64,000 bases of DNA from Exiguobacterium sp. s122. GTDB taxonomy: Bacteria > Bacillota > Bacilli > Exiguobacteriales > Exiguobacteriaceae. Under the pieces are notes generated by a model. The model ran no database searches. It had not been told where the DNA came from and worked only from the letters and a program-made list of their open reading frames with translations. A program made the position numbers and the translations under genes. Location: the NCBI RefSeq assembly GCF_018618475.1, contig NZ_JACSMD010000001.1, positions 620,001 to 684,000 on the forward strand, read 5' to 3'. Below are positions 858 through 19,467 of this stretch, piece after piece; position 1 is the stretch's first letter; each line of letters begins with the position of its first letter.

Positions 858-887
858 GTTGTGCTACAATAGATGCGAGGTGATGGT

Positions 888-1715
888 ATGAACTATTCAG
901 TGGAAGAAGTAAGACAAGCAGAAGACGTGAGAGCGCTCGAAGAAGCGGTCAATACGTTCGACGGAATCGACGTCAAAGTCGGACATGAGGCGGTCGGGCA
1001 AAACGATTACGCCGTCTACGCGGACGATTTGCTCGTCGGGTATTTAGTGTTGTTCCCGTATCTCGAGAACGAATATGAAGTGAACGCGCTCGTGCATCCG
1101 GACTATCGGAAACAGGGCATCTTCACGGCGCTATTGGAGACGGCGAAACGGGACGCGAAAGCGAACGGGTGTGAGGCGTTCACGTTTGTGATTGACCGGA
1201 AGTCGAAGTCCGGCAAGGCGGTCGTCGATCAACTCGGTGCAACATATCGCTTTTCCGAGTACAATCTCGTCTTGAAGAAAGCAGAGCTGTTCTTGAAACC
1301 GAACGAGGTGTCGCTCCGCGAGGCGACGGACGCCGACCGTCCACTGATTATTGAGACGCTCTCTGAGGCGTTCGGTGACCCGATTGATGTGACGGAGAAC
1401 ATCTATCGTCAAATCGACACACCGGACCGCGTGACGTATATTGGTGAAGTCGAAGGACGTCCGGTCGGCGTCATCCGCGCGCTCCTCTCAGGCGACGACG
1501 CGGGAAGCATCCACGCGTTCGGCGTTCGGGCGAGCGAGCAAGGTAACGGCTACGGTTCGAAAATGTTGAAACAGATGGTCCAACAGCTGTTCCGTATGGG
1601 CCGGACGAAGCTCGAACTCGACGTCGAGACGGAGAACAAGGCTGCGCTCGAGATTTATAAGCGGGCCGGTTTCGCAGAAAATGGTGGGTATGAGTTCTAT
1701 CTACTCGAACTGTGA
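888..1715 (+). CDS. GNAT-family N-acetyltransferase with two GNAT domains
   Basis: 275 residues. The ATG at 888 follows GAGGTGA at the right distance; the ATG at 873 lacks a ribosome site. Two tandem GNAT folds are visible. Residues about 1-130 contain an acyl-CoA loop-like HPDYRKQGIFTALL. Residues about 140-275 start at VSLREATDADRP and contain SEQGNGYGSKML, the R/Q-x-x-G-x-G/A pyrophosphate-binding motif, then the typical ALEIYKRAGF. The family transfers acyl groups from acyl-CoA to amines; the substrate cannot be read from sequence. The next gene starts 9 bp after it, so the two are probably co-transcribed. Confidence 0.88.
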   Translation: MNYSVEEVRQAEDVRALEEAVNTFDGIDVKVGHEAVGQNDYAVYADDLLVGYLVLFPYLENEYEVNALVHPDYRKQGIFTALLETAKRDAKANGCEAFTFVIDRKSKSGKAVVDQLGATYRFSEYNLVLKKAELFLKPNEVSLREATDADRPLIIETLSEAFGDPIDVTENIYRQIDTPDRVTYIGEVEGRPVGVIRALLSGDDAGSIHAFGVRASEQGNGYGSKMLKQMVQQLFRMGRTKLELDVETENKAALEIYKRAGFAENGGYEFYLLEL

Positions 1716-3600: not shown

Positions 3601-3683
3601 ATACAAGGTGAGGGGCCGGCCTAAACCTTGTATGCTCGGACAAACGGATTTGGAAGAGCGGAAAAACTTAAACCTATGGAGGG
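3601..3683 (+). promoter_or_regulatory. Structured hag leader with repeated GGA motifs (possible CsrA target)
   Basis: ATACAAGGT (3601-3609) pairs perfectly with ACCTTGTAT (3625-3633) around a 15-nt loop. Downstream GGA triplets lie at 3638, 3646, 3652 and 3660, and the ribosome site GGAGGG lies at 3678-3683. In Bacillus, CsrA binds GGA-containing sites in the hag leader, one over the ribosome site, and FliW antagonises it. The arrangement here fits that model, but csrA and fliW are not in this window, so the role is inferred. Confidence 0.5.
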
Positions 3684-3691
3684 AAATTACA

Positions 3692-4510
3692 ATGATTATC
3701 AACCACAACCTTAACGCAATGAACGCACACCGTAACATGTCGTTCAACACAACGAACTCTGGGAAAGCAATGGAGAAACTTTCTTCAGGCCTTCGCATCA
3801 ACCGCGCTGGCGATGACGCTGCTGGTCTTGCAATCTCTGAAAAAATGCGTGGACAAATTCGCGGTCTTGATCAAGCATCACGTAACGCTCAAGACGGAAT
3901 CTCACTCATCCAAACAGCTGAAGGTGCATTGAACGAAACGCACTCAATCCTTCAACGTATGCGTGAACTCGCAGTTCAATCGTCAAACGATACGAACACT
4001 GACGATGATCGTTCTGAGCTTCAAAAAGAAGTAACAGAGTTGACAAGTGAAATCTCACGTATCGCGAACAACACTGAATTCAACACGAAGACGTTGATGA
4101 ACGGTGGGTTCTCGGCTACTGGTCTTAAATTCCACATTGGTGCAAACTCTGGTCAAAACATCGAATTGACAATTGCTGACATGACTGCAACTGGACTTTC
4201 TATTCAAGATGTTGACATTTCAGATCAATCTGGTGCAAACGCAGCGATTACGACAATTAACACTGCTATTACAACGGTATCTTCTGAGCGTGCAAAACTC
4301 GGGGCTACACAAAACCGTCTTGAGCACACAATCAACAACTTGAACGTTGGAGCTGAAAACCTTCAAGCTGCTGAATCACGTGTCCGTGACGTAGATATGG
4401 CGAAAGAAATGATGAACTTCACGAAAAACAACATCTTGAACCAAGCTGCTCAAGCAATGCTTGCTCAAGCGAACCAACAGCCACAAGCTGTACTTCAGTT
4501 GTTACGTTAA
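3692..4510 (+). CDS. hag: Flagellin (major filament protein)
   Basis: 272 residues from the ATG at 3692, preceded by GGAGGG. Upstream in-frame starts lie inside the leader. The conserved flagellin N-terminus ([17 protein letters not shown], then [20 protein letters not shown]) and C-terminus ([20 protein letters not shown], ending QAVLQLLR) are both present. The centre is very short, so D2/D3 domains are absent and the filament subunit is minimal. Ser/Thr residues in the middle are candidate glycosylation sites, given the maf and pse genes next door. Its codon use looks like that of a highly expressed gene. The SigD promoter and strong terminator make it a single-gene unit. Confidence 0.96.
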
Positions 4511-4532
4511 GATTCTCTTAAAGTCACAAATA

Positions 4533-4568
4533 GAGGGGGACAGACATTACGTCTGTTTCCCTTTTTTT
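4533..4568 (+). terminator. Terminator of hag
   Basis: GGGGACAGAC pairs with GTCTGTTTCCC, with small irregularities, around ATTAC; seven Ts follow. Confidence 0.9.
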
Positions 4569-4651: not shown

Positions 4652-6553
4652 ATGTCGCAACTAAAGCAAATATTAGACGAGCTTCACGGAATTTCAAAAC
4701 AAGTTATTTTATTGGCAGAAAGTGATGCTTCGGACATCCTTGATGAAATTGTTGAAATGATTCGTCTATTTGGAGAAAAAATTCAATCAAACGGTATTTG
4801 TACACCAGAACACGTATTACAGCTTCAAGCTATAAAACAAGAGAACAAACAATTATTTGCTAACGTTATCTATGACAATTTGCAATTATTAATTACAGAA
4901 TATGAATCGTTATTGGCTATGGAAAATCAAAATCAAATTGTTTTCCCGTTTCGTTACCACGAGAATGAAATGGCTCTTGTGAAGCAACACGAAAACAACC
5001 ATTATTTCGTTAATGAAACGATTATGGAATTCGAAAAGTTACAGGCGAGGATAAGTGAGGATACGGAAGCCATTATTCTATTAGGGTATGGAAGTGGAAT
5101 GTTTCATGCAGAGTTATTAAAACAATATCATGTATTGACAATCGATCCACTTAGCTTACCTGCCGATGTAAAAAATGATACGGTATTATCTTTCAATGAC
5201 TCGAAAGATGCTTCTAAAACTCTACTACAATCGAAGTTTCAATCATTTATTGGTCTGAAAACAGAAGTCATCAAGCATCCTCTTTACGAGGATACCCAAT
5301 CCCTACTTGAACTCTTAAAGTTGGTTCGCAACTATTTGAGTGAAAGTCGAATTGATTTGACTACTCGGAAAGTATATACAGAAAGCTGGTATCAAGAATC
5401 GTTTCAAAATGCGAGCTACTTAAAAGAAAATTTAGATCGTATTATTACTATCGATAGTCTTAAACACCAATATAAAGGAAGCCACGCGCTAATGATTGCT
5501 GGTGGGCCTTCATTAGAAGACGCTATTCCTTACCTTCAACAGGCACAACATGCTTATTACATCATCGCCATCGGTCAGACCGTAAAAGTACTATTCGATC
5601 ATGAAATTCGACCTGACTTTGTTATCTCGATTGACGCAGGAGAAGCAAATGCTCATTTCTTCCAAGATATCGAATTAGATATGCCTCTTGTATATTCGTT
5701 GCAAGTGAATCATCAGATTCCGAAACGAGCAAATGGGTTACTTATCCCATATGCGGATGCACAGCTCACACAAGATCTATTGACCTTTTCGAAAACAGTA
5801 TTTAGTACTTACCCAACGGTAGCGTTAGCAGCGGTTGCTTTTGCAAATTATTTAGATTTTGATTCAATTGGATTAATTGGACAAGATTTAGCGTTGAGAG
5901 AAGGCGAATATTATAGCGCTTCTGTCAAAGAGGTTTCTTCTACGGACGGACAGTTTAATAAAACATTATATGATATTCCGTTAAATAATGGCGAAATGGG
6001 TAAAACGACTCCGGTCTTATTCGGTTTTTTAACGAGCTATCAATCACTCATTAAATCACATGGTGGTTTGTCTGAGAAATTGATTAATTATGCAGAACAA
6101 GGCGCACTTATTAAAGGTGCATCATATAGATCGCTTGAAACGCTTCAAACAAAGTCAATTCAAAAGCGGAAGCTTGAAAAAGTGGACGCTCCAAATTTAA
6201 ATATTCCTATCGAATACGTTCAAGGAATGTTAGATAGTGTCTTGGACCGGTTGCAAACTCTCGCAAAACGATTACACCGTATCACGCAGCAAAAAGCAGT
6301 GACAGTCGATGAATTTGAAAAAATGTTACGCGATTGGGACGCAATGATTGAAGCGCCTTCGTTCCGCACACATATTATGCCATTGCAGCTTGTAAATCTA
6401 TTAATCATTCAAAATAAAATTAAATTCCACAATCGATACAATCGAACGAGTGCGATGCGTCTTTCTATTTTGTTACGCATGTTTGAGGCAATTCAAGAGC
6501 TAGAGACTCAACTTCGAACAATCAAACGGACATATGTAGAGACCATTACATGA
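4652..6553 (+). CDS. maf: Maf-type flagellin glycosyltransferase (DUF115 motility accessory factor)
   Basis: 633 residues. The central region (about 255-450) has the DUF115/MptE-like signature: GSHALMIAGGPSLEDAI, then IAIGQTVKVLFDHEIRPDF and ISIDAG. Flanking regions are helical, as in Maf proteins. Maf enzymes transfer CMP-activated nonulosonic acids (pseudaminic or legionaminic) to flagellin Ser/Thr residues before export. It lies between hag and the pse operon, exactly where such an enzyme is expected. GC is clearly lower than in the window's core genes. A weak GGGG-type ribosome site precedes the ATG. The gap to pseB is 67 bp without a clear terminator, so it may be co-transcribed with the pse genes. 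Confidence 0.88.
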   Translation: MSQLKQILDELHGISKQVILLAESDASDILDEIVEMIRLFGEKIQSNGICTPEHVLQLQAIKQENKQLFANVIYDNLQLLITEYESLLAMENQNQIVFPFRYHENEMALVKQHENNHYFVNETIMEFEKLQARISEDTEAIILLGYGSGMFHAELLKQYHVLTIDPLSLPADVKNDTVLSFNDSKDASKTLLQSKFQSFIGLKTEVIKHPLYEDTQSLLELLKLVRNYLSESRIDLTTRKVYTESWYQESFQNASYLKENLDRIITIDSLKHQYKGSHALMIAGGPSLEDAIPYLQQAQHAYYIIAIGQTVKVLFDHEIRPDFVISIDAGEANAHFFQDIELDMPLVYSLQVNHQIPKRANGLLIPYADAQLTQDLLTFSKTVFSTYPTVALAAVAFANYLDFDSIGLIGQDLALREGEYYSASVKEVSSTDGQFNKTLYDIPLNNGEMGKTTPVLFGFLTSYQSLIKSHGGLSEKLINYAEQGALIKGASYRSLETLQTKSIQKRKLEKVDAPNLNIPIEYVQGMLDSVLDRLQTLAKRLHRITQQKAVTVDEFEKMLRDWDAMIEAPSFRTHIMPLQLVNLLIIQNKIKFHNRYNRTSAMRLSILLRMFEAIQELETQLRTIKRTYVETIT

Positions 6554-7625: not shown

Positions 7626-8798
7626 GTGATTGATCAACCTGTTCGAAACACATTTTTACCCTATGGAAAACAATGGATTGATGAAGCTGATATTCAAGCA
7701 GTAGTCGAAACGTTACGAGGTGATTTTTTAACGACAGGTCCTGCCGTTGATGAATTCGAACGAGCTATCGCTCAGTACGTTGGAGCCCGTTACGCTGTCT
7801 CTTTTTCGAATGGGACAGCCGCCTTACACGGTGCTTGTTTTGCAGCTGGAATCGAGGAAGGTGACGAAGTCATCACTACACCGATGACCTTTGCAGCGAG
7901 TGCAAACTGTGTCCTTTATCAAAAAGGAACGCCTGTGTTCGCGGACATCGATCCTATGACATATAACCTAGACCCGGTAGCGGTTGAACGAGCCATCACA
8001 CCGCATACGAAAGCCATCATCCCTGTCCATTTTACAGGACAACCCGCGGACATGCAGGAAATTCATCGCATCGCAAACGAACATGGTTTGGTCGTGATTG
8101 AAGATGCCGCCCATGCGTTAGGTGCAACGTATCAAGAGAAACGAATCGGTGCATTAAGCGACATGACCATGTTTAGTTTTCATCCTGTGAAACATATCAC
8201 GTCCGGAGAAGGCGGAATTATCACAACAAACGATGAAGGTTATTACCAAAAGCTATTGCAATTTCGTACACATGGAATTACGAAAAATGCCAATCAACTG
8301 ATGGATACCCACGGTCCTTGGTATTATGAGATGCAGTTTTTAGGGTTCAATTATCGCATGACCGACATTCAAGCAGTACTCGGGACAAGTCAATTAAAAA
8401 AAATCGAACGGTTTATCGAGTTACGAAAGCAGTATGTCGCACTATACGAAAAAGCATTTCGCGATTTACCTGAATTGACGACACCTTACCAGGACGAGAT
8501 TGGTGAATCAAGCTGGCACTTATACATCATTCGATTAAATCAAAGCAAACTTCGTGTTTCTCGAAAAGAAATTTTTGAAGCGTTATTAAACGAAAACATC
8601 GGCGTCAACGTCCATTATATTCCTGTCCATTGGATGCCTTATTATCAAGAGCTTGGTTATTCAAAAGGGATTTGTCCCAACGCTGAGGCGTTGTATGAGG
8701 ATATCATCACCCTTCCTCTATTCCCAGCTATGACAGAACATGATGTGTATGATGTCATCGATGCGGTTAAAAAAGTATTAACACGATATGGGAAGTGA
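7626..8798 (+). CDS. pseC: UDP-4-amino-4,6-dideoxy-N-acetyl-beta-L-altrosamine transaminase, PseC
   Basis: 390 residues from a GTG at 7626 that follows GAGAGGGAG. It belongs to the DegT/DnrJ/EryC1/StrS aminotransferase family. The PLP-binding lysine is in FSFHPVKHITSGEGG (residues about 183-197), and the substrate loop SNGTAALHGAC (about 61-71) and the EDAAHALGA motif are present. It installs the 4-amino group on the PseB product, using an amino-acid donor. That amine is the one acylated in the next step, normally by PseH. Confidence 0.94.
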   Translation: MIDQPVRNTFLPYGKQWIDEADIQAVVETLRGDFLTTGPAVDEFERAIAQYVGARYAVSFSNGTAALHGACFAAGIEEGDEVITTPMTFAASANCVLYQKGTPVFADIDPMTYNLDPVAVERAITPHTKAIIPVHFTGQPADMQEIHRIANEHGLVVIEDAAHALGATYQEKRIGALSDMTMFSFHPVKHITSGEGGIITTNDEGYYQKLLQFRTHGITKNANQLMDTHGPWYYEMQFLGFNYRMTDIQAVLGTSQLKKIERFIELRKQYVALYEKAFRDLPELTTPYQDEIGESSWHLYIIRLNQSKLRVSRKEIFEALLNENIGVNVHYIPVHWMPYYQELGYSKGICPNAEALYEDIITLPLFPAMTEHDVYDVIDAVKKVLTRYGK

Positions 8799-8807
8799 TG
8801 AGTAACG

Positions 8808-9539
8808 ATGAAAACAGTGGCTATTATTCAAGCGAGAATGGGTTCGACTCGACTTCCAGGTAAAGTGTTGATGAAACTTCAAGACAAAACCGTCCTAGAA
8901 CATGTCATCGAACGTGTGAAACAAGCGAGATTGATTGACGAAATTGTTGTAGCAACAACAACACTGAGCGAAGATGACGTGTTATATGAAGAGGCGATGC
9001 GATACGGCGTTCGCGTTTATCGGGGGAGTTCAGACAACGTGTTAAGTCGATATTATGAGGCAGCGAGAGAAGTAAAAGCTGATGTGGTGATTCGAATAAC
9101 TTCTGATTGCCCGTTAATCGACCCAGCGATAATTGATCAAATGGTTGAAAAATATCATTACAATCAATATGAGATGGTGACAAATTCCGGCCCCATTTCG
9201 AGTAAGAGAACATTTCCAAGAGGACTAGATGTCGAAATTTTCTCAGTTGAAATGCTAAACGATGCATTTTACAACTATAGTGAGAAGTATCATATGGAAC
9301 ATGTTACACCATATATGTATGAAAAAAGTCAAAACATATATCATTACATTTGTCATGAAGATTATTCAAACTATCGATTGACACTAGATACTGAAGAAGA
9401 TTTAGAACTTATCACACTAATATATAAAAAATTGTACGATAGAAATCATTCATTTTATCTATCTGACATTTTAAATTTTTTAAATAATAATCCAAATCTT
9501 ATTAATATCAATGCTCATATTGAACAAAAAAAATATTGA
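8808..9539 (+). CDS. pseF: SpsF-type cytidylyltransferase, probable CMP-pseudaminic acid synthetase (PseF role)
   Basis: 243 residues. The N-terminus AIIQARMGSTRLPGKVL is the nucleotide-binding motif of the SpsF/CMP-KDO-synthetase-like group, and ITSDCPLIDP and RGLDVEIF follow. By position in a pse operon it should activate the nonulosonic acid with CTP. It is closer in motif to the SpsF (spore-coat polysaccharide) branch than to Campylobacter PseF, so the symbol is given by context. GC drops sharply within the gene: the first roughly 300 bp resemble pseB/pseC, while the 3' half (from about 9,150) is as AT-rich as pseG. The C-terminal tail is rich in Asn/Ile/Lys. Confidence 0.82.
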   Translation: MKTVAIIQARMGSTRLPGKVLMKLQDKTVLEHVIERVKQARLIDEIVVATTTLSEDDVLYEEAMRYGVRVYRGSSDNVLSRYYEAAREVKADVVIRITSDCPLIDPAIIDQMVEKYHYNQYEMVTNSGPISSKRTFPRGLDVEIFSVEMLNDAFYNYSEKYHMEHVTPYMYEKSQNIYHYICHEDYSNYRLTLDTEEDLELITLIYKKLYDRNHSFYLSDILNFLNNNPNLININAHIEQKKY

Positions 9540-9568
9540 CGGAACTTTGACAAAGGATAGGTATTTGT

Positions 9569-10540
9569 ATGAATGTCATAATTTTTACTGAGGGTGGAAC
9601 AGTTAATGGATTTGGTCACATCTCTAGATGCAGTGCATTATACGATGAATTGTTGGCTAGAGGATTAGAAGTAGAATTAATAATCAATACTGATTTAAAG
9701 AAAATTGGTATGTTAGCTGATAGAACGTATCGAATAGCGAATTGGTTATCTATATCGTATCTTAAAGAAGTTTCATTTGATAAAACTTATTGTATTATTG
9801 ATTCTTATGTTGCTGACATGGAAATCCTTGAGTATCTTGAGTTAAATTCAATTAAGTGCATGTATATTGATGACTACAATAGATTAAATTATCCTAAAGG
9901 AATTACGTTGAATCCTAGTTTGAATGAAGAATTTGTGTGTCAAAACAAGAAAAACAGAATTGGTGGAAAAGATTACATTATTCTAAGAAAAGAATTTCAT
10001 ACGAGTATTAATAGAACGGTTAACAAAAGGGCAAAAAATGTACTTGTAACTTTAGGTGGATCAGATTCAAAAGGATTAACAAATATAATATTAGAAAAAG
10101 TGATTCCTCATTTTTCAACTCTTTCATTTGATATCGTTGTTGGTAACAACGATAATATTGCTCAATTTATTAAAAGGAATCCTATAAAAAATGTTACTTT
10201 AATCGAAAATGCAAGTGCTAACGAAATGAGACGATTAATGGAGGCTTCTGATTTTACAATTACAGCTGCAGGACAAACTATTTACGAACTCATTGTAACG
10301 AAAACACCGTTTATTCCAATTAAAACTGCTGAAAATCAAAGTGATAATATTAAAGGTTTGCTCAAGTTTAATATTGTCAATAATGTGATTGATTCAGAAG
10401 ACTTTTCATGGTTTGAAAATCTAATTTATGAAATAAATAATCTTGAAAATTATAATAATAGATTAGAAGTATCACACAAATCTAAAGGTTTAGTTGATGG
10501 AAAAGGTTGCGCAAGAATTATTAATCGATTGTTAGAATAG
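9569..10540 (+). CDS. pseG: UDP-2,4-diacylamido-2,4,6-trideoxy-beta-L-altropyranose hydrolase, PseG
   Basis: 323 residues. It is GT-B-like, related to MurG. The N-terminal GGTVNGFGHISRCSAL holds the glycine-rich loop and the conserved GxGHxxR histidine, and VLVTLGGSDSKGLT and ITAAGQTIYELI are typical PseG motifs. PseG removes UDP from the 2,4-diamido sugar so that PseI can condense it with PEP. Here it would have to accept the product of the neighbouring formyltransferase. It is strongly AT-rich (about 30% GC by eye), unlike pseB/pseC. It starts 29 bp after the cytidylyltransferase gene with an AAAGGATAGG site. Confidence 0.88.
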   Translation: MNVIIFTEGGTVNGFGHISRCSALYDELLARGLEVELIINTDLKKIGMLADRTYRIANWLSISYLKEVSFDKTYCIIDSYVADMEILEYLELNSIKCMYIDDYNRLNYPKGITLNPSLNEEFVCQNKKNRIGGKDYIILRKEFHTSINRTVNKRAKNVLVTLGGSDSKGLTNIILEKVIPHFSTLSFDIVVGNNDNIAQFIKRNPIKNVTLIENASANEMRRLMEASDFTITAAGQTIYELIVTKTPFIPIKTAENQSDNIKGLLKFNIVNNVIDSEDFSWFENLIYEINNLENYNNRLEVSHKSKGLVDGKGCARIINRLLE

Positions 10541-10553
10541 AGGTGAGTTTACA

Positions 10554-11396
10554 ATGACTATGATTTTTTGTGGTTTTGGTAAACTAGGGAAAATATGCTT
10601 AGAAACTTTACTTTATAATAAGTATAGTATTTCCTTTGTACTAACCCATAGAGAATTGGATAAAGATAGTGTAGATACATATTGTGAGTTAAATAACATT
10701 TCGTATTCATATATAGATTTGCGAAAAGAAAAAAGTGATTTACTCAGTCAGATATTAAATCAAAGTCCAAACTATTTAGTGAGCGTGAACTATAGGTATA
10801 TTCTACCCCTTGAAATTATTAATTCTGTAGGAGTTGCTTTAAATCTTCACGGCTCACTTTTACCAAAATACAGAGGTAGGACACCACATGTATGGAGTAT
10901 TATAAATGGAGAAGATTACAGTGGTGTAACTTCGCATTTAATCGATGAAGGTGTAGACACTGGAAAAATAATCAGGCAAGTAAAAATTAAAATTGATCAA
11001 GAAAGTACTGGATATGATTTGTTACAAGAATACGCAAAAGAATATCCGAAGTTGCTATTAGATTCGTTAAAAGATATTCAAAATGGAACTTTACTAAAGG
11101 AACAAGATGAGAAACAAGCAACTTATTTTGGAAAAAGAACTCCGGAAATGGGCTATGTAGATTTTTTTAAAAATTCAATCGAAATAATAAACTTCATCAG
11201 AGCACAGGCTAAACCATATCCAGGCGCCTATTATTATTTAAAAGATGGAAGAAAAATAGTAATACACAAGCTTGTTAGAGAAGCTAATGTAGTGAATATG
11301 GTTGAAGATATTGGAATAATCGAGAAAATAGACGACATATATTATGTAAGATGTAAAAGTGATGTTTTAAAGATAGTTGACTACGAAATATTTTAA
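10554..11396 (+). CDS. Formyltransferase-family enzyme in the PseH position; probable sugar-nucleotide N-formyltransferase
   Basis: 280 residues. The formyl-transferase fold is recognisable from LNLHGSLLPKYRGRTPHVWS (residues about 96-115), which carries the Asn-x-His catalytic pair and the SLLPxxxG loop seen in Fmt and ArnA, and from HLIDEGVDTG with the conserved aspartate. The N-terminus (MIFCGFGKLGKICLETL) is Rossmann-like. The C-terminal third resembles the C-terminal region of sugar-formylating members. Its place between pseG and pseI, with no GNAT-type pseH in the operon, suggests that it formylates the 4-amino group of UDP-4-amino-6-deoxy-AltNAc with formyl-tetrahydrofolate. The sugar and position are inference; the family assignment is firm. 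Confidence 0.85.
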   Translation: MTMIFCGFGKLGKICLETLLYNKYSISFVLTHRELDKDSVDTYCELNNISYSYIDLRKEKSDLLSQILNQSPNYLVSVNYRYILPLEIINSVGVALNLHGSLLPKYRGRTPHVWSIINGEDYSGVTSHLIDEGVDTGKIIRQVKIKIDQESTGYDLLQEYAKEYPKLLLDSLKDIQNGTLLKEQDEKQATYFGKRTPEMGYVDFFKNSIEIINFIRAQAKPYPGAYYYLKDGRKIVIHKLVREANVVNMVEDIGIIEKIDDIYYVRCKSDVLKIVDYEIF

Positions 11397-11425
11397 CTGC
11401 GATTAACTATGAGGTGTGTACAATA

Positions 11426-12472
11426 ATGTCTATTAAAATCCAAGATGTTTCTGTAAGGGATGGCAAGAATGTATTTATTATTGCAGAATTATCTGCAAAC
11501 CACTGCCAAAACATTCAAACTGCTCTCGACACGATAAAAGCTGCGAAAGAATCTGGAGCAGATGCAATTAAGTTGCAAACCTACACTCCAGATACAATTA
11601 CAATAAATTCGAATAATGAGTATTTCAAAATCAATAGCGGTACCATCTGGGACGGAAGGACCCTATACGATCTTTACCAAGAAGCTTATACACCTTGGGA
11701 ATGGCATCAAGAATTGATGGATTATGCGAAAGAGCTGGATATCATTTGCTTCTCTAGCCCATTTGATCCGACTGCGGTGGATTTATTAGAGAGTTTGGAC
11801 GTTCCAGCTTATAAAATTGCTTCTTTCGAGATTACAGACTTACCACTTATCGAGTATGTGGCATCTAAACAAAAGCCAATCATCATCTCAACGGGTATCG
11901 CGACCCTGCAAGAAATCGAGGACGCAGTGAACGTATGTAGGCGGGTCGGGAATGAACAAATTATTTTATTGAAATGTACATCCGCCTATCCGGCTAAAAT
12001 CGAAGATGCCAATCTCCTTACGATGCAAAACATGAGAGAAACGTTTGGTGTCGAAGTCGGATTATCAGATCATACGCTAGGAATAACCGTGCCTGTCGTT
12101 TCCGTTGCATTAGGAGCTTCTGTAATTGAGAAGCATTTCATTCTGGATAAGCAAATTGGAGGCCCAGACGCCAGTTTTTCCTTGGAACCAGACGAATTTA
12201 AAGCGATGGTAGATGCCGTTCGAGATGCGGAACAGGCATTAGGTCGCGTCGATTATCAATTAAACGAGAAAAAAGTAAAAAGCCGAGAGTTTTCACGCTC
12301 GTTGTTTGTTGTAAAAGATATTCAAGCGGGAGAAGTATTCACGACCGAACATGTCCGAAGTATTCGACCAGGTCATGGATTAGCGCCAAAACATCTTACG
12401 TCAATCATTGGAAAAGTAGCACGAGTAGACGTTGAGCGTGGTACTCCGATGAGTTGGAATTTGATGCAATAA
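11426..12472 (+). CDS. pseI: Pseudaminic acid synthase, PseI
   Basis: 348 residues. The ATG at 11426 is 9 nt after GAGGTG; an in-frame GTG at 11414 overlaps that site. It belongs to the NeuB family. A TIM barrel (about 1-280) carries IAELSANHCQN, GADAIKLQTYTPDT, CTSAYPA and SDHTLG, and a C-terminal SAF/antifreeze-like domain (about 285-345) includes SIRPGHGLAPKHL. It condenses 2,4-diamido-2,4,6-trideoxy-altropyranose with PEP to give the nine-carbon acid. The first about 100-200 bp share the AT-rich composition of the upstream genes; the remainder returns to about 45% GC. Last gene of the operon, closed by a terminator. Confidence 0.93.
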   Translation: MSIKIQDVSVRDGKNVFIIAELSANHCQNIQTALDTIKAAKESGADAIKLQTYTPDTITINSNNEYFKINSGTIWDGRTLYDLYQEAYTPWEWHQELMDYAKELDIICFSSPFDPTAVDLLESLDVPAYKIASFEITDLPLIEYVASKQKPIIISTGIATLQEIEDAVNVCRRVGNEQIILLKCTSAYPAKIEDANLLTMQNMRETFGVEVGLSDHTLGITVPVVSVALGASVIEKHFILDKQIGGPDASFSLEPDEFKAMVDAVRDAEQALGRVDYQLNEKKVKSREFSRSLFVVKDIQAGEVFTTEHVRSIRPGHGLAPKHLTSIIGKVARVDVERGTPMSWNLMQ

Positions 12473-12476
12473 CCTA

Positions 12477-12501
12477 AGACGACGTGAAGTCGTCTTTTTT
12501 C
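12477..12501 (+). terminator. Terminator of the pse operon
   Basis: AGACGAC and GTCGTCT pair around a five-nucleotide loop and are followed by TTTTT. Confidence 0.9.
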
Positions 12502-18642: not shown

Positions 18643-19467
18643 TTAGTTCAATAATTGTAACACGCCTTGCGGCAATGCGTTCGATTGAGCAATCATCGCC
18701 ATGCCAGATTGATTTAAAATATTGAGGCGGGCGAAGTCCATCATCTCACGAGCCATATCGGCATCACGAATACGCGACTCGGACGCCGTCAAATTCTCTG
18801 AACCGATAGAGACAACACTGACATTCGCCTCAAGACGATTTTGTATAGCGCCGAGTTTTGAACGTTCAAGTGAAACGGCGTTAATAGCGGCATCAAATTT
18901 AGCGATGGCGTCCCCGGCTTCTGACGCTGTCAACACGCTAATACCGTCAATCTCGAGGGCACTGGCCCGCAGGTCGGCAACATTTAAGATAACGGCTTCA
19001 CCGCTTCCGGCACCGACCTGAAAGAACAGTTCTTTTGCGCCTTGTGTGTATTCGCCGTTCATGATTTTCTTCGAGTTGAATTCGGTCGTCTCGGCGATAC
19101 GAGTCACTTCAGCAGTGAGCGCGGTAATTTCTTCTTGGACGGCTTTGGCATCGTCAGGACTAAGCGTACCGTTTGCTGCCTGCACCGATAGTTCACGCAT
19201 ACGCTGGAGGAGAGCGTGTGTCTCGTTCATTCCGCCTTCGAGCGTCTGCGTGAGCGAGATGCCGTCAAGGGTGTTACGTTCGGCCATCGACAACGAGTCG
19301 AGACGCATGCGCATTTTTTCTGAGATGGCGAGACCGGCCGCGTCATCAGACGCTTTATTGATGCGGACACCGCTTGAAAGTCGATCCATCGTCTTCTTCA
19401 TCGTCGCTTGGTTCATCGAGAGCGACGTATAGGCTTTTAAGGCTTGAACGTTATTGGTAATTTTCAT
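18643..19467 (-). CDS. Second flagellin
   Basis: 274 residues. Conserved N-terminus (KAYTSLSMNQATMKKTMDRL, then [18 protein letters not shown]) and C-terminus (RIRDADMAREMMDFARLNIL, ending LPQGVLQLLN). It is as short as hag, with no D2/D3 domains, but clearly diverged from it and with the general genomic codon bias rather than hag's optimised one. It follows AGGAGG, and its start overlaps the upstream FliS-like gene by 17 bp. A minor filament subunit or an alternative filament are both possible. Confidence 0.93.
   Translation of the reverse strand: MKITNNVQALKAYTSLSMNQATMKKTMDRLSSGVRINKASDDAAGLAISEKMRMRLDSLSMAERNTLDGISLTQTLEGGMNETHALLQRMRELSVQAANGTLSPDDAKAVQEEITALTAEVTRIAETTEFNSKKIMNGEYTQGAKELFFQVGAGSGEAVILNVADLRASALEIDGISVLTASEAGDAIAKFDAAINAVSLERSKLGAIQNRLEANVSVVSIGSENLTASESRIRDADMAREMMDFARLNILNQSGMAMIAQSNALPQGVLQLLN

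What the first reader, a model, noticed from the sequence alone, without database searches (positions are those of the whole stretch)
10554..11396. Formyltransferase where PseH is expected: possible 7-N-formyl pseudaminic acid on the flagellum
The operon has pseB, pseC, a cytidylyltransferase, pseG and pseI, but no GNAT-type pseH. In its place is an Fmt/ArnA-type formyltransferase with NLHGSLLPKYRGR and the conserved aspartate. PseH normally acetylates the 4-amino group that becomes N7 of pseudaminic acid. Formylation there would give a 5-acetamido-7-formamido sugar. N-formylated nonulosonic acids are known chemically, but I know of few complete flagellar loci like this.
Basis: partly seen in the sequence, partly recalled or inferred. 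Interest (0 to 1): 0.75.

Follow-up and report, generated by a model that had tools for sequence, protein, structure and literature searches.

The report
Formyl-capping enzyme in flagellar sugar operon
In this bacterium's flagellar sugar operon the enzyme that normally adds an acetyl cap to the sugar is replaced by one that probably adds a formyl cap, and a near relative carries the same operon with an acetyl-type enzyme in its place.

Summary
Window 10554-11396 encodes an intact 280-aa, two-domain formyltransferase (PF00551 + PF02911). It lies between pseG and pseI in a maf-pseB-C-F-G-FT-pseI unit between flagellin and flaG/fliD. No PseH was detected in the genome: the best PseH-model score is 42.5 bits (cut-off 93.1), and the fused PseH-like GNAT domain of congener G016 finds nothing at E<=10, while finding itself or kin in three control genomes.

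The best evidence is a natural swap. Congener G016 has the same island without this gene; its PseG carries a fused GNAT domain. G016 and G012, which has the formyltransferase, are 0.88-0.99 identical along the aligned island except for one cassette (mid-pseF to 5' pseI) and a short maf patch. A second genus shows a similar alternation with a PseJ-type enzyme.

So a Pse5Ac7Fo-type sugar on flagellin is the best reading, untested by chemistry. It is not unprecedented: PseJ of Anoxybacillus (PDB 6ci2/6ci4; paper recalled, not held) has this role. What looks new is that this enzyme is not an obvious PseJ orthologue: its best solved relative is the ArnA transformylase (112 versus 54 bits), though a common clade with PseJ is not formally rejected (p=0.059).

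The parts
10554..11396 (+). ArnA-transformylase-like sugar N-formyltransferase (280 aa) in the PseH slot
   Evidence: PF00551 + PF02911; closest solved relatives ArnA 112 bits, PseJ 54 bits; model pLDDT 87, Z 30.2 to ArnA 1yrw over 270 residues, Fmt structures tied within 1 Z
9569..10540 (+). PseG-type UDP-sugar hydrolase, 323 aa, of a divergent PseG group in which three of six sampled members carry a fused GNAT domain
   Evidence: TIGR03590 114.8 bits, below cut-off 153.55; PseG tree
8808..9539 (+). CMP-nonulosonic acid synthetase (PseF role); a cassette breakpoint lies near 9050-9200
   Evidence: PF02348 127.8 bits; TIGR03584 only 29.9 bits; identity and GC shift
11414..12472 (+). PseI pseudaminic acid synthase (probable start ATG 11426); the other cassette breakpoint lies in its 5' part, near 11500-11750
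   Evidence: TIGR03586 535.4 bits
6621..7586 (+). PseB 4,6-dehydratase/5-epimerase
   Evidence: TIGR03589 542.2 bits, over cut-off
7626..8798 (+). PseC aminotransferase, makes the free 4-amino group
   Evidence: TIGR03588 506.1 bits, over cut-off
4652..6553 (+). Maf-type flagellin nonulosonic acid transferase; 5092-5347 is a second patch where formyl-type G012 resembles G000 more than it does elsewhere in maf
   Evidence: PF01973 125.1 bits
3608..4510 (+). Flagellin (Hag), presumed acceptor
   Evidence: PF00669 and PF00700
9100..11650 (+). Exchanged low-GC cassette (end of pseF, pseG, formyltransferase, start of pseI): G012/G016 identity drops from 0.88-0.99 to about 0.45-0.65; G000 GC there about 0.23-0.36 (rest of the island about 0.30-0.50, whole window 0.51)
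   Evidence: informative-site counts
4532..4564 (+). Terminator-like hairpin after flagellin (upstream edge of the maf-pse unit)
   Evidence: 14 pairs plus T-run; consensus match only, number of such sites in the region not above shuffles
12476..12496 (+). Terminator-like hairpin just after pseI (downstream edge)
   Evidence: 8 pairs plus T-run; consensus match only

Best explanation
The gene encodes a 10-formyl-THF-dependent sugar N-formyltransferase that takes the step done elsewhere by PseH. Proposed route: PseB and PseC turn UDP-GlcNAc into UDP-4-amino-4,6-dideoxy-beta-L-AltNAc; this enzyme formylates the 4-amino group; PseG removes UDP; PseI adds pyruvate; the PseF-type synthetase makes CMP-5-acetamido-7-formamido pseudaminic acid (Pse5Ac7Fo); Maf transfers it to flagellin. 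The enzyme and its PseG partner form a cassette that has been exchanged by recombination with an acetylating PseG-GNAT fusion inside an otherwise conserved island. Shown: gene content, order, catalytic residues, predicted fold, no detectable PseH, and the swap. Inferred: substrate, product, formyl donor, the acetylating activity of the fused GNAT, and presence on the flagellum.
For: Two-domain formyltransferase with N97/H99/D135 kept and an ArnA/Fmt-like predicted fold. It sits between pseG and pseI in a unit bounded by terminator-like hairpins. Same gene order with a 71% identical enzyme in congener G012 and a 53% identical one in Amphibacillus jilinensis. Congener G016 has the same island, no such gene, and a 477-aa PseG with a C-terminal GNAT (PF13302 39.9 bits over cut-off 25.4; PseH model 36.7 bits, below cut-off). 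G012 and G016 diverge strongly only in the cassette and a short maf patch. No kin of that GNAT domain in G000 or G012 at E<=10, with hits in 3 control genomes. Parallel: G119 (PseJ-type enzyme) and G130 (GNAT) of one genus alternate between pseG and pseI. G322 has a PseJ orthologue (337 bits to 6ci2) between pseG and pseI. The PseG group of the window (6 of 49 sequences) holds 3 partners of this formyltransferase and 3 GNAT fusions.
Against: No biochemical or mass-spectrometric data. PseG and the cytidylyltransferase score below their family cut-offs, so the pathway label rests on PseB, PseC and PseI plus context. The closest solved relative, ArnA, makes a formyl group that is later removed (recalled); no deformylase-like family was seen among the operon genes scanned, but no genome-wide search for one was made. 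In G012, the nearest relative with this gene, pseI has an in-frame premature stop: a sequencing error or a dead pathway. The PseH cut-off does not recognise this group's own fused GNAT (36.7-38.8 bits), so only one search is a fair test of absence.
Confidence: 0.85

Rival explanations
1. The enzyme formylates a different substrate of the same island (for example a later CMP-sugar or a second sugar on the flagellin), while N7 is acetylated by an unlinked GNAT.
For: The genome has 17 weak hits to the PseH model at E<=10; substrate cannot be read from sequence.
Against: The best own hit (42.5 bits) has counterparts of like range and score (39-46 bits) in pse-minus congeners (orthology not tested), so it looks generic; the fused PseH-like GNAT of G016 has no kin in G000; PseC makes the only free amine expected in this pathway (pathway knowledge); the gene takes the GNAT's place in a swap.
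Confidence: 0.09
2. Formylation is transient, as in the ArnA pathway: N7 is protected as formamide and later deformylated, so the final sugar has a free or otherwise acylated amine.
For: Nearest solved relative is ArnA, whose formyl group is removed by ArnD (recalled; arnD stands beside arnA in E. coli).
Against: No deformylase-like family among the operon genes scanned; PseJ precedent gives a formamido product (recalled).
Confidence: 0.04
3. It is a duplicated housekeeping methionyl-tRNA formyltransferase stranded in the operon.
For: Same superfamily, Fmt model 121.6 bits; Fmt structures tie with ArnA in the second structural look; a clade with Fmt is not rejected (p-AU 0.119).
Against: Below the Fmt cut-off of 201.5 bits; the genome has two further PF00551 genes, one fused or read through with a deformylase-like N-terminus as expected of a def-fmt region; gene order kept with Amphibacillus at 53% identity.
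Confidence: 0.02

Closest known systems
PseJ, pseudaminic acid pathway formyltransferase (PDB 6ci2, 6ci4, 6ci5, 6edk; Anoxybacillus kamchatkensis, Reimer et al. 2018 ACS Chem Biol, both recalled; paper not held)
   Same: Formyltransferase at the PseH step (recalled); an orthologue (G322, 337 bits to 6ci2) lies between pseG and pseI exactly as here
   Different: The G322 PseJ orthologue is 192 aa with PF00551 only; the window enzyme is 280 aa with PF02911 as well, aligns to it over only 96 positions (36%), and falls in its own clade (common clade p-AU 0.059)
ArnA N-terminal transformylase domain (UDP-4-amino-4-deoxy-L-arabinose formyltransferase)
   Same: Best solved match by sequence (112 bits) and top of the Foldseek list; 32% identity over 238 positions; Z 30.2, rmsd 2.0 over 270 residues, Fmt structures tied; predicted substrate is likewise a UDP-4-amino-L-sugar
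   Different: No fused decarboxylase domain; not in an arn operon; 153.9 bits against a whole-protein cut-off of 777 for PRK08125, and the best NCBIfam model is another formyltransferase, PRK06988, at 168.3 of 316 bits
PseH N-acetyltransferase (TIGR03585)
   Same: Same proposed step and operon slot
   Different: GNAT fold and acetyl-CoA instead of formyltransferase fold and formyl-THF
Geobacillus flagellin glycosylation islands (PMC5109656: passages, and the first part of section 8)
   Same: Types II-IV have pseC/F/G/I and no PseH ortholog; fmt genes occur in Gram-positive flagellar islands, fmt2 in both type III strains
   Different: In what I read the authors do not put fmt2 at the PseH step (they do propose such a replacement for another sugar, fmt3 for fdtC); whether fmt2 is PseJ-like or window-like was not tested

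Membership tests
CMP-pseudaminic acid pathway | PseB, PseC and PseI over their curated cut-offs | tested here: met
   542.2/407.75, 506.1/423.5, 535.4/340.25 bits
CMP-pseudaminic acid pathway | PseG (TIGR03590) over cut-off | tested here: not met
   114.8 against 153.55 bits; a divergent PseG group shared with GNAT fusions
CMP-pseudaminic acid pathway | PseF (TIGR03584) over cut-off | tested here: not met
   29.9 against 205.7 bits, although PF02348 is over cut-off; a local profile seeded with this protein finds pseF-like genes in most of the other PseI loci
PseJ-type Pse formyltransferase | Formyltransferase catalytic Asn-His-Asp (triad recalled) | tested here: met
   N97, H99, D135
PseJ-type Pse formyltransferase | Located in a pse locus lacking PseH | tested here: met
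PseJ-type Pse formyltransferase | Single-domain PseJ architecture | tested here: not met
   PF02911 present in window, G012 and Amphibacillus enzymes, absent in the G322 PseJ orthologue
PseJ-type Pse formyltransferase | Same clade as PseJ | tested here: inconclusive
   Separate clades, 100/100 and 100/99; forced common clade p-AU 0.059
PseJ-type Pse formyltransferase | Formylates UDP-4-amino-4,6-dideoxy-L-AltNAc | not testable with these tools
   needs enzyme assay
ArnA | Transformylase fused to UDP-GlcA decarboxylase domain | tested here: not met
   280 aa, matched only to positions 4-277 of 649; 153.9 of 777 bits to PRK08125
Methionyl-tRNA formyltransferase | TIGR00460 over cut-off | tested here: not met
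   121.6 of 201.5 bits
PseH | GNAT domain | tested here: not met
   No GNAT family among its Pfam or NCBIfam matches at E<=0.001

The most novel reading that the evidence does not exclude
Flagellar Pse acylation is a recombining module: an ArnA-like formyltransferase, recruited separately from PseJ, has replaced a PseG-fused acetyltransferase as a pseF'-pseG-acyltransferase-pseI' cassette, and a 250-bp patch of the Maf transferase was exchanged as well, perhaps because Maf reads the N7 acyl group. Closely related species would thus wear flagella differing by one CH2 per sugar.
Probability: 0.4. Interest if true: 0.65.

Novelty: new variant of a known kind. Interest (0 to 1): 0.5.

Why it matters
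It gives a closely matched pair of natural islands (formyl type, acetyl type) in which the effect of one acyl group on Maf specificity, filament assembly, phage receptor use and flagellin sensing can be tested. It also suggests that the PseH step was filled more than once by different formyltransferases, so a missing pseH should not be read as an incomplete pathway.

Tried and rejected
The GNAT gene at window 873-1715 as a hidden PseH: rejected, as it has a counterpart in 13 of 13 pse-minus congeners examined (of 16 such congeners), is also present beside the GNAT-fusion island of G016, and scores 25.2 bits on the PseH model.

Orthology to PseJ: not supported by score or architecture, but a joint clade is not formally rejected (p-AU 0.059). 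The deep placement beside ArnA is weak (78/87).

A wider family of this exact enzyme: one search found only the own genome among 398 genomes of the phylum (drawn evenly) at E<=1e-50; one search gave 12 loci, of which only Amphibacillus (L012) is in a pse locus, while in the other 11 no PseI homologue was found in the fetched stretch. One search is a pattern scan and a lower bound.

Promoter scan: no excess over shuffles (25 found, mean 28.8), so no promoter is claimed. Terminator-like counts are also at the shuffle mean (5 found, mean 4.9).

Maf structure: phmmer against the PDB found no relative at E<=0.01, so the exchanged Maf patch was not placed on a structure.

Literature: searched the open library. 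None of the listed titles was a paper on PseJ (PseJ with pseudaminic, gave 0), and the PseJ paper itself is not held. Of the papers found, I read passages of PMC5109656 and part 1 of 2 of its section 8, and passages of PMC13317340 ('formyl' does not occur in the main text) and PMC8851196 (reports a pseudaminic acid synthase cluster in Exiguobacterium profundum; 'formyl' does not occur). For the rest only the search listings were seen.

Rows left out or counted with care: the census counts PseH only when over the curated cut-off within 10.5 kb and formyltransferases only when PF00551 matches within 6.5 kb. G152's 227-aa formyltransferase-like ORF and G214's PF00551 match about 20 kb away are therefore not counted. 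G326 and G360, counted as 'none', have sub-threshold GNAT genes. G087's contig ends at pseI and could not score it. The sample includes the whole own genus (19 genomes), so the two loci of the window's type are over-represented. The list was cut below about E 3e-9; places over the cut-off are listed first.

Full report
What is there. The ORF at 10554-11396 is real: ATG start, ribosome-binding-like GAGGTGAG upstream, 280 aa, TAA stop. It has both formyltransferase domains (PF00551 90.3 bits, PF02911 37.3 bits). Its best NCBIfam models are PRK06988 formyltransferase (168.3 of 316 bits) and ArnA (153.9 of 777 bits); no NCBIfam cut-off is reached. Its closest solved relatives by sequence are ArnA (112 bits), then other sugar and tRNA formyltransferases; PseJ follows at 54 bits. 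An AlphaFold2 model (mean pLDDT 87) is matched first by ArnA in Foldseek and in the second look by the ArnA transformylase domain (1yrw, Z 30.2, rmsd 2.0, 270 residues), with Fmt structures tied within 1 Z. The catalytic residues, labelled Asn-His-Asp from knowledge of the family, are N97, H99 and D135.

The operon. Flagellin (3608-4510), a terminator-like hairpin (4532-4564), maf, pseB, pseC, cytidylyltransferase, pseG, the formyltransferase, pseI, a second hairpin (12476-12496), then flaG, fliD, fliS (the last three are named by resemblance). PseB, PseC and PseI pass curated cut-offs; PseG and the cytidylyltransferase do not. The genus is probably Exiguobacterium; this is my recollection from genome size and gene content and comes from no call.

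Is PseH absent? In the own genome 0 of 17 PseH-model hits at E<=10 pass the cut-off, and 0 of 19 genus genomes have one over it. That test alone is weak, because the fused GNAT of G016 scores only 38.8 bits there. A fairer test uses that GNAT domain itself: in 9 genomes it finds G016 (itself), G270 (50%) and G278 (40% for the fusion, 25% for a stand-alone PseH), with weak hits to other GNATs and one marginal hit in G009 (E 0.016); it finds nothing at E<=10 in G000, G012, G005, G013 and G002.

The natural swap. PseI over the cut-off occurs in 3 of 19 genus genomes: G000, G012 and G016. All three have the same island. G000 and G012 have a 323-aa PseG and the formyltransferase. G016 has no formyltransferase there but a 477-aa PseG with a C-terminal GNAT. 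From maf to fliS, G012 and G016 are 0.88-0.99 identical in 200-base steps, but between about 9100 and 11650 (mid-pseF to the 5' part of pseI) this falls to about 0.45-0.65 (within the acyltransferase part the two genes are not homologous, so values there mean nothing), and in maf around 5100-5300 to 0.74-0.82. Informative sites flip: outside, almost all 250-base bins favour G012=G016; bins 9250 to 11250 all favour G000=G012. One other bin departs: 4000-4250, in the flagellin, favours G000=G016 (34 sites, against 19 and 11). The cassette is AT-rich (pseG 0.286, formyltransferase 0.300 GC); maf is 0.367, other pse genes 0.34-0.43, the window 0.51.

A second patch. In maf, 5092-5347, 37 sites group G000 with G012, 26 group the two congeners and 15 group G000 with G016, while flanking maf bins are 1-6 against 39-78; 0 of 2000 shuffles of site order reached the segment score (shuffles ignore linkage between sites). 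In protein residues 151-240 the counts are 12 against 2; in the rest of Maf they are 7 against 102. This is one event in three genomes, so a functional link to the acyl group is only a lead.

Where the island comes from. In 13 of 13 pse-minus congeners examined (of 16), flagellin gene(s) precede flaG with no maf or pse gene recognised between. In the PseG tree (49 sequences, quick method) a distinct group of 6 (support 100, long stem) holds the three partners of this formyltransferase (G000, G012, Amphibacillus) and three PseG-GNAT fusions (G016, G270, G278); a fourth fusion, G089, lies elsewhere, and the program warns that long branches meet at this group and G030. A plausible history is that the GNAT domain was lost when the formyltransferase arrived; direction is not shown.

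How common. Among 398 Bacilli genomes (drawn evenly, own genus whole) 50 have PseI at E<=1e-100, at 51 places. Near these: 27 PseH over cut-off only, 1 PseH plus formyltransferase, 8 formyltransferase only, 4 PseG-GNAT fusions, 11 neither (from; fusions also seen). The 8 are G000, G012, G322, G119, G226, G160, G170 and G030. G322, G119 and G226 form the PseJ clade; G160 and G170 (with G165) form another; G030 sits on a long branch with G152. Genus g66 shows a like pattern: G119 has a PseJ-type enzyme and G130 a GNAT between pseG and pseI; their PseI is 84%, PseC 87%, FliS 81%, PseB 77% and FliD 68% identical, but PseF 60% and PseG 49%, and their best Maf copies are not alike (26%). There the contrast is less clean than in G012/G016.

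Novelty. The chemistry is anticipated by PseJ (PDB entries named 'formyltransferase PseJ'; the paper on a 7-formamido CMP-Pse pathway is recalled and was not held). The Geobacillus survey PMC5109656 (passages, and part of section 8) notes absent PseH orthologs and formyltransferase genes in flagellar islands without joining the two in what I read. The window enzyme differs from PseJ in architecture and best match, so it looks like a separate recruitment, but the tree does not exclude a shared clade (p-AU 0.059). I therefore file it as a new variant of a known kind.

Most novel reading left open: a recombining acyl-choice module with a co-exchanged Maf patch, i.e. glycoform switching between closely related species. 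It would be tested by flagellin mass spectrometry of formyl-type and G016-type strains and by Maf swaps.

Noticed in passing
G012 (L076 10557-11420; G012:C1:1204628-1205608): pseI of G012 carries an in-frame premature stop, and its flaG and fliD read as one 673-aa ORF: sequencing error or decaying island.
   Followed up: no
L118, L125, L105 (and by eye L116, L126, L142): pse loci lacking both PseH over cut-off and formyltransferase: PylC-like ATP-grasp genes (3 checked by Pfam) and in some a HAD phosphatase gene (1 checked) stand near pseI, hinting at a ligase-made N-acyl group instead of acetyl or formyl.
   Followed up: partly
window 5092-5347: Recombination-like patch in maf shared by the two formyl-type genomes.
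   Followed up: partly
L123, L113, L140 (G160, G170, G165): A third group of roughly 270-aa formyltransferases near PseI, distinct from both PseJ and the window enzyme.
   Followed up: no
window 18643-19467 (-): A second flagellin-like ORF (by eye, not scanned) on the minus strand about 14 kb from the first, with small ORFs beside it.
   Followed up: no
L155 (G017) and L156 (G005), between hag and flaG: Pse-minus congeners carry other large ORFs (512 and 785 aa; 1249 aa) at the island site, perhaps other flagellin-modifying genes (not identified).
   Followed up: no
window 4000-4250 (flagellin variable part): The flagellin bin groups G000 with G016 rather than the two closer congeners, a further sign of local exchange.
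   Followed up: no
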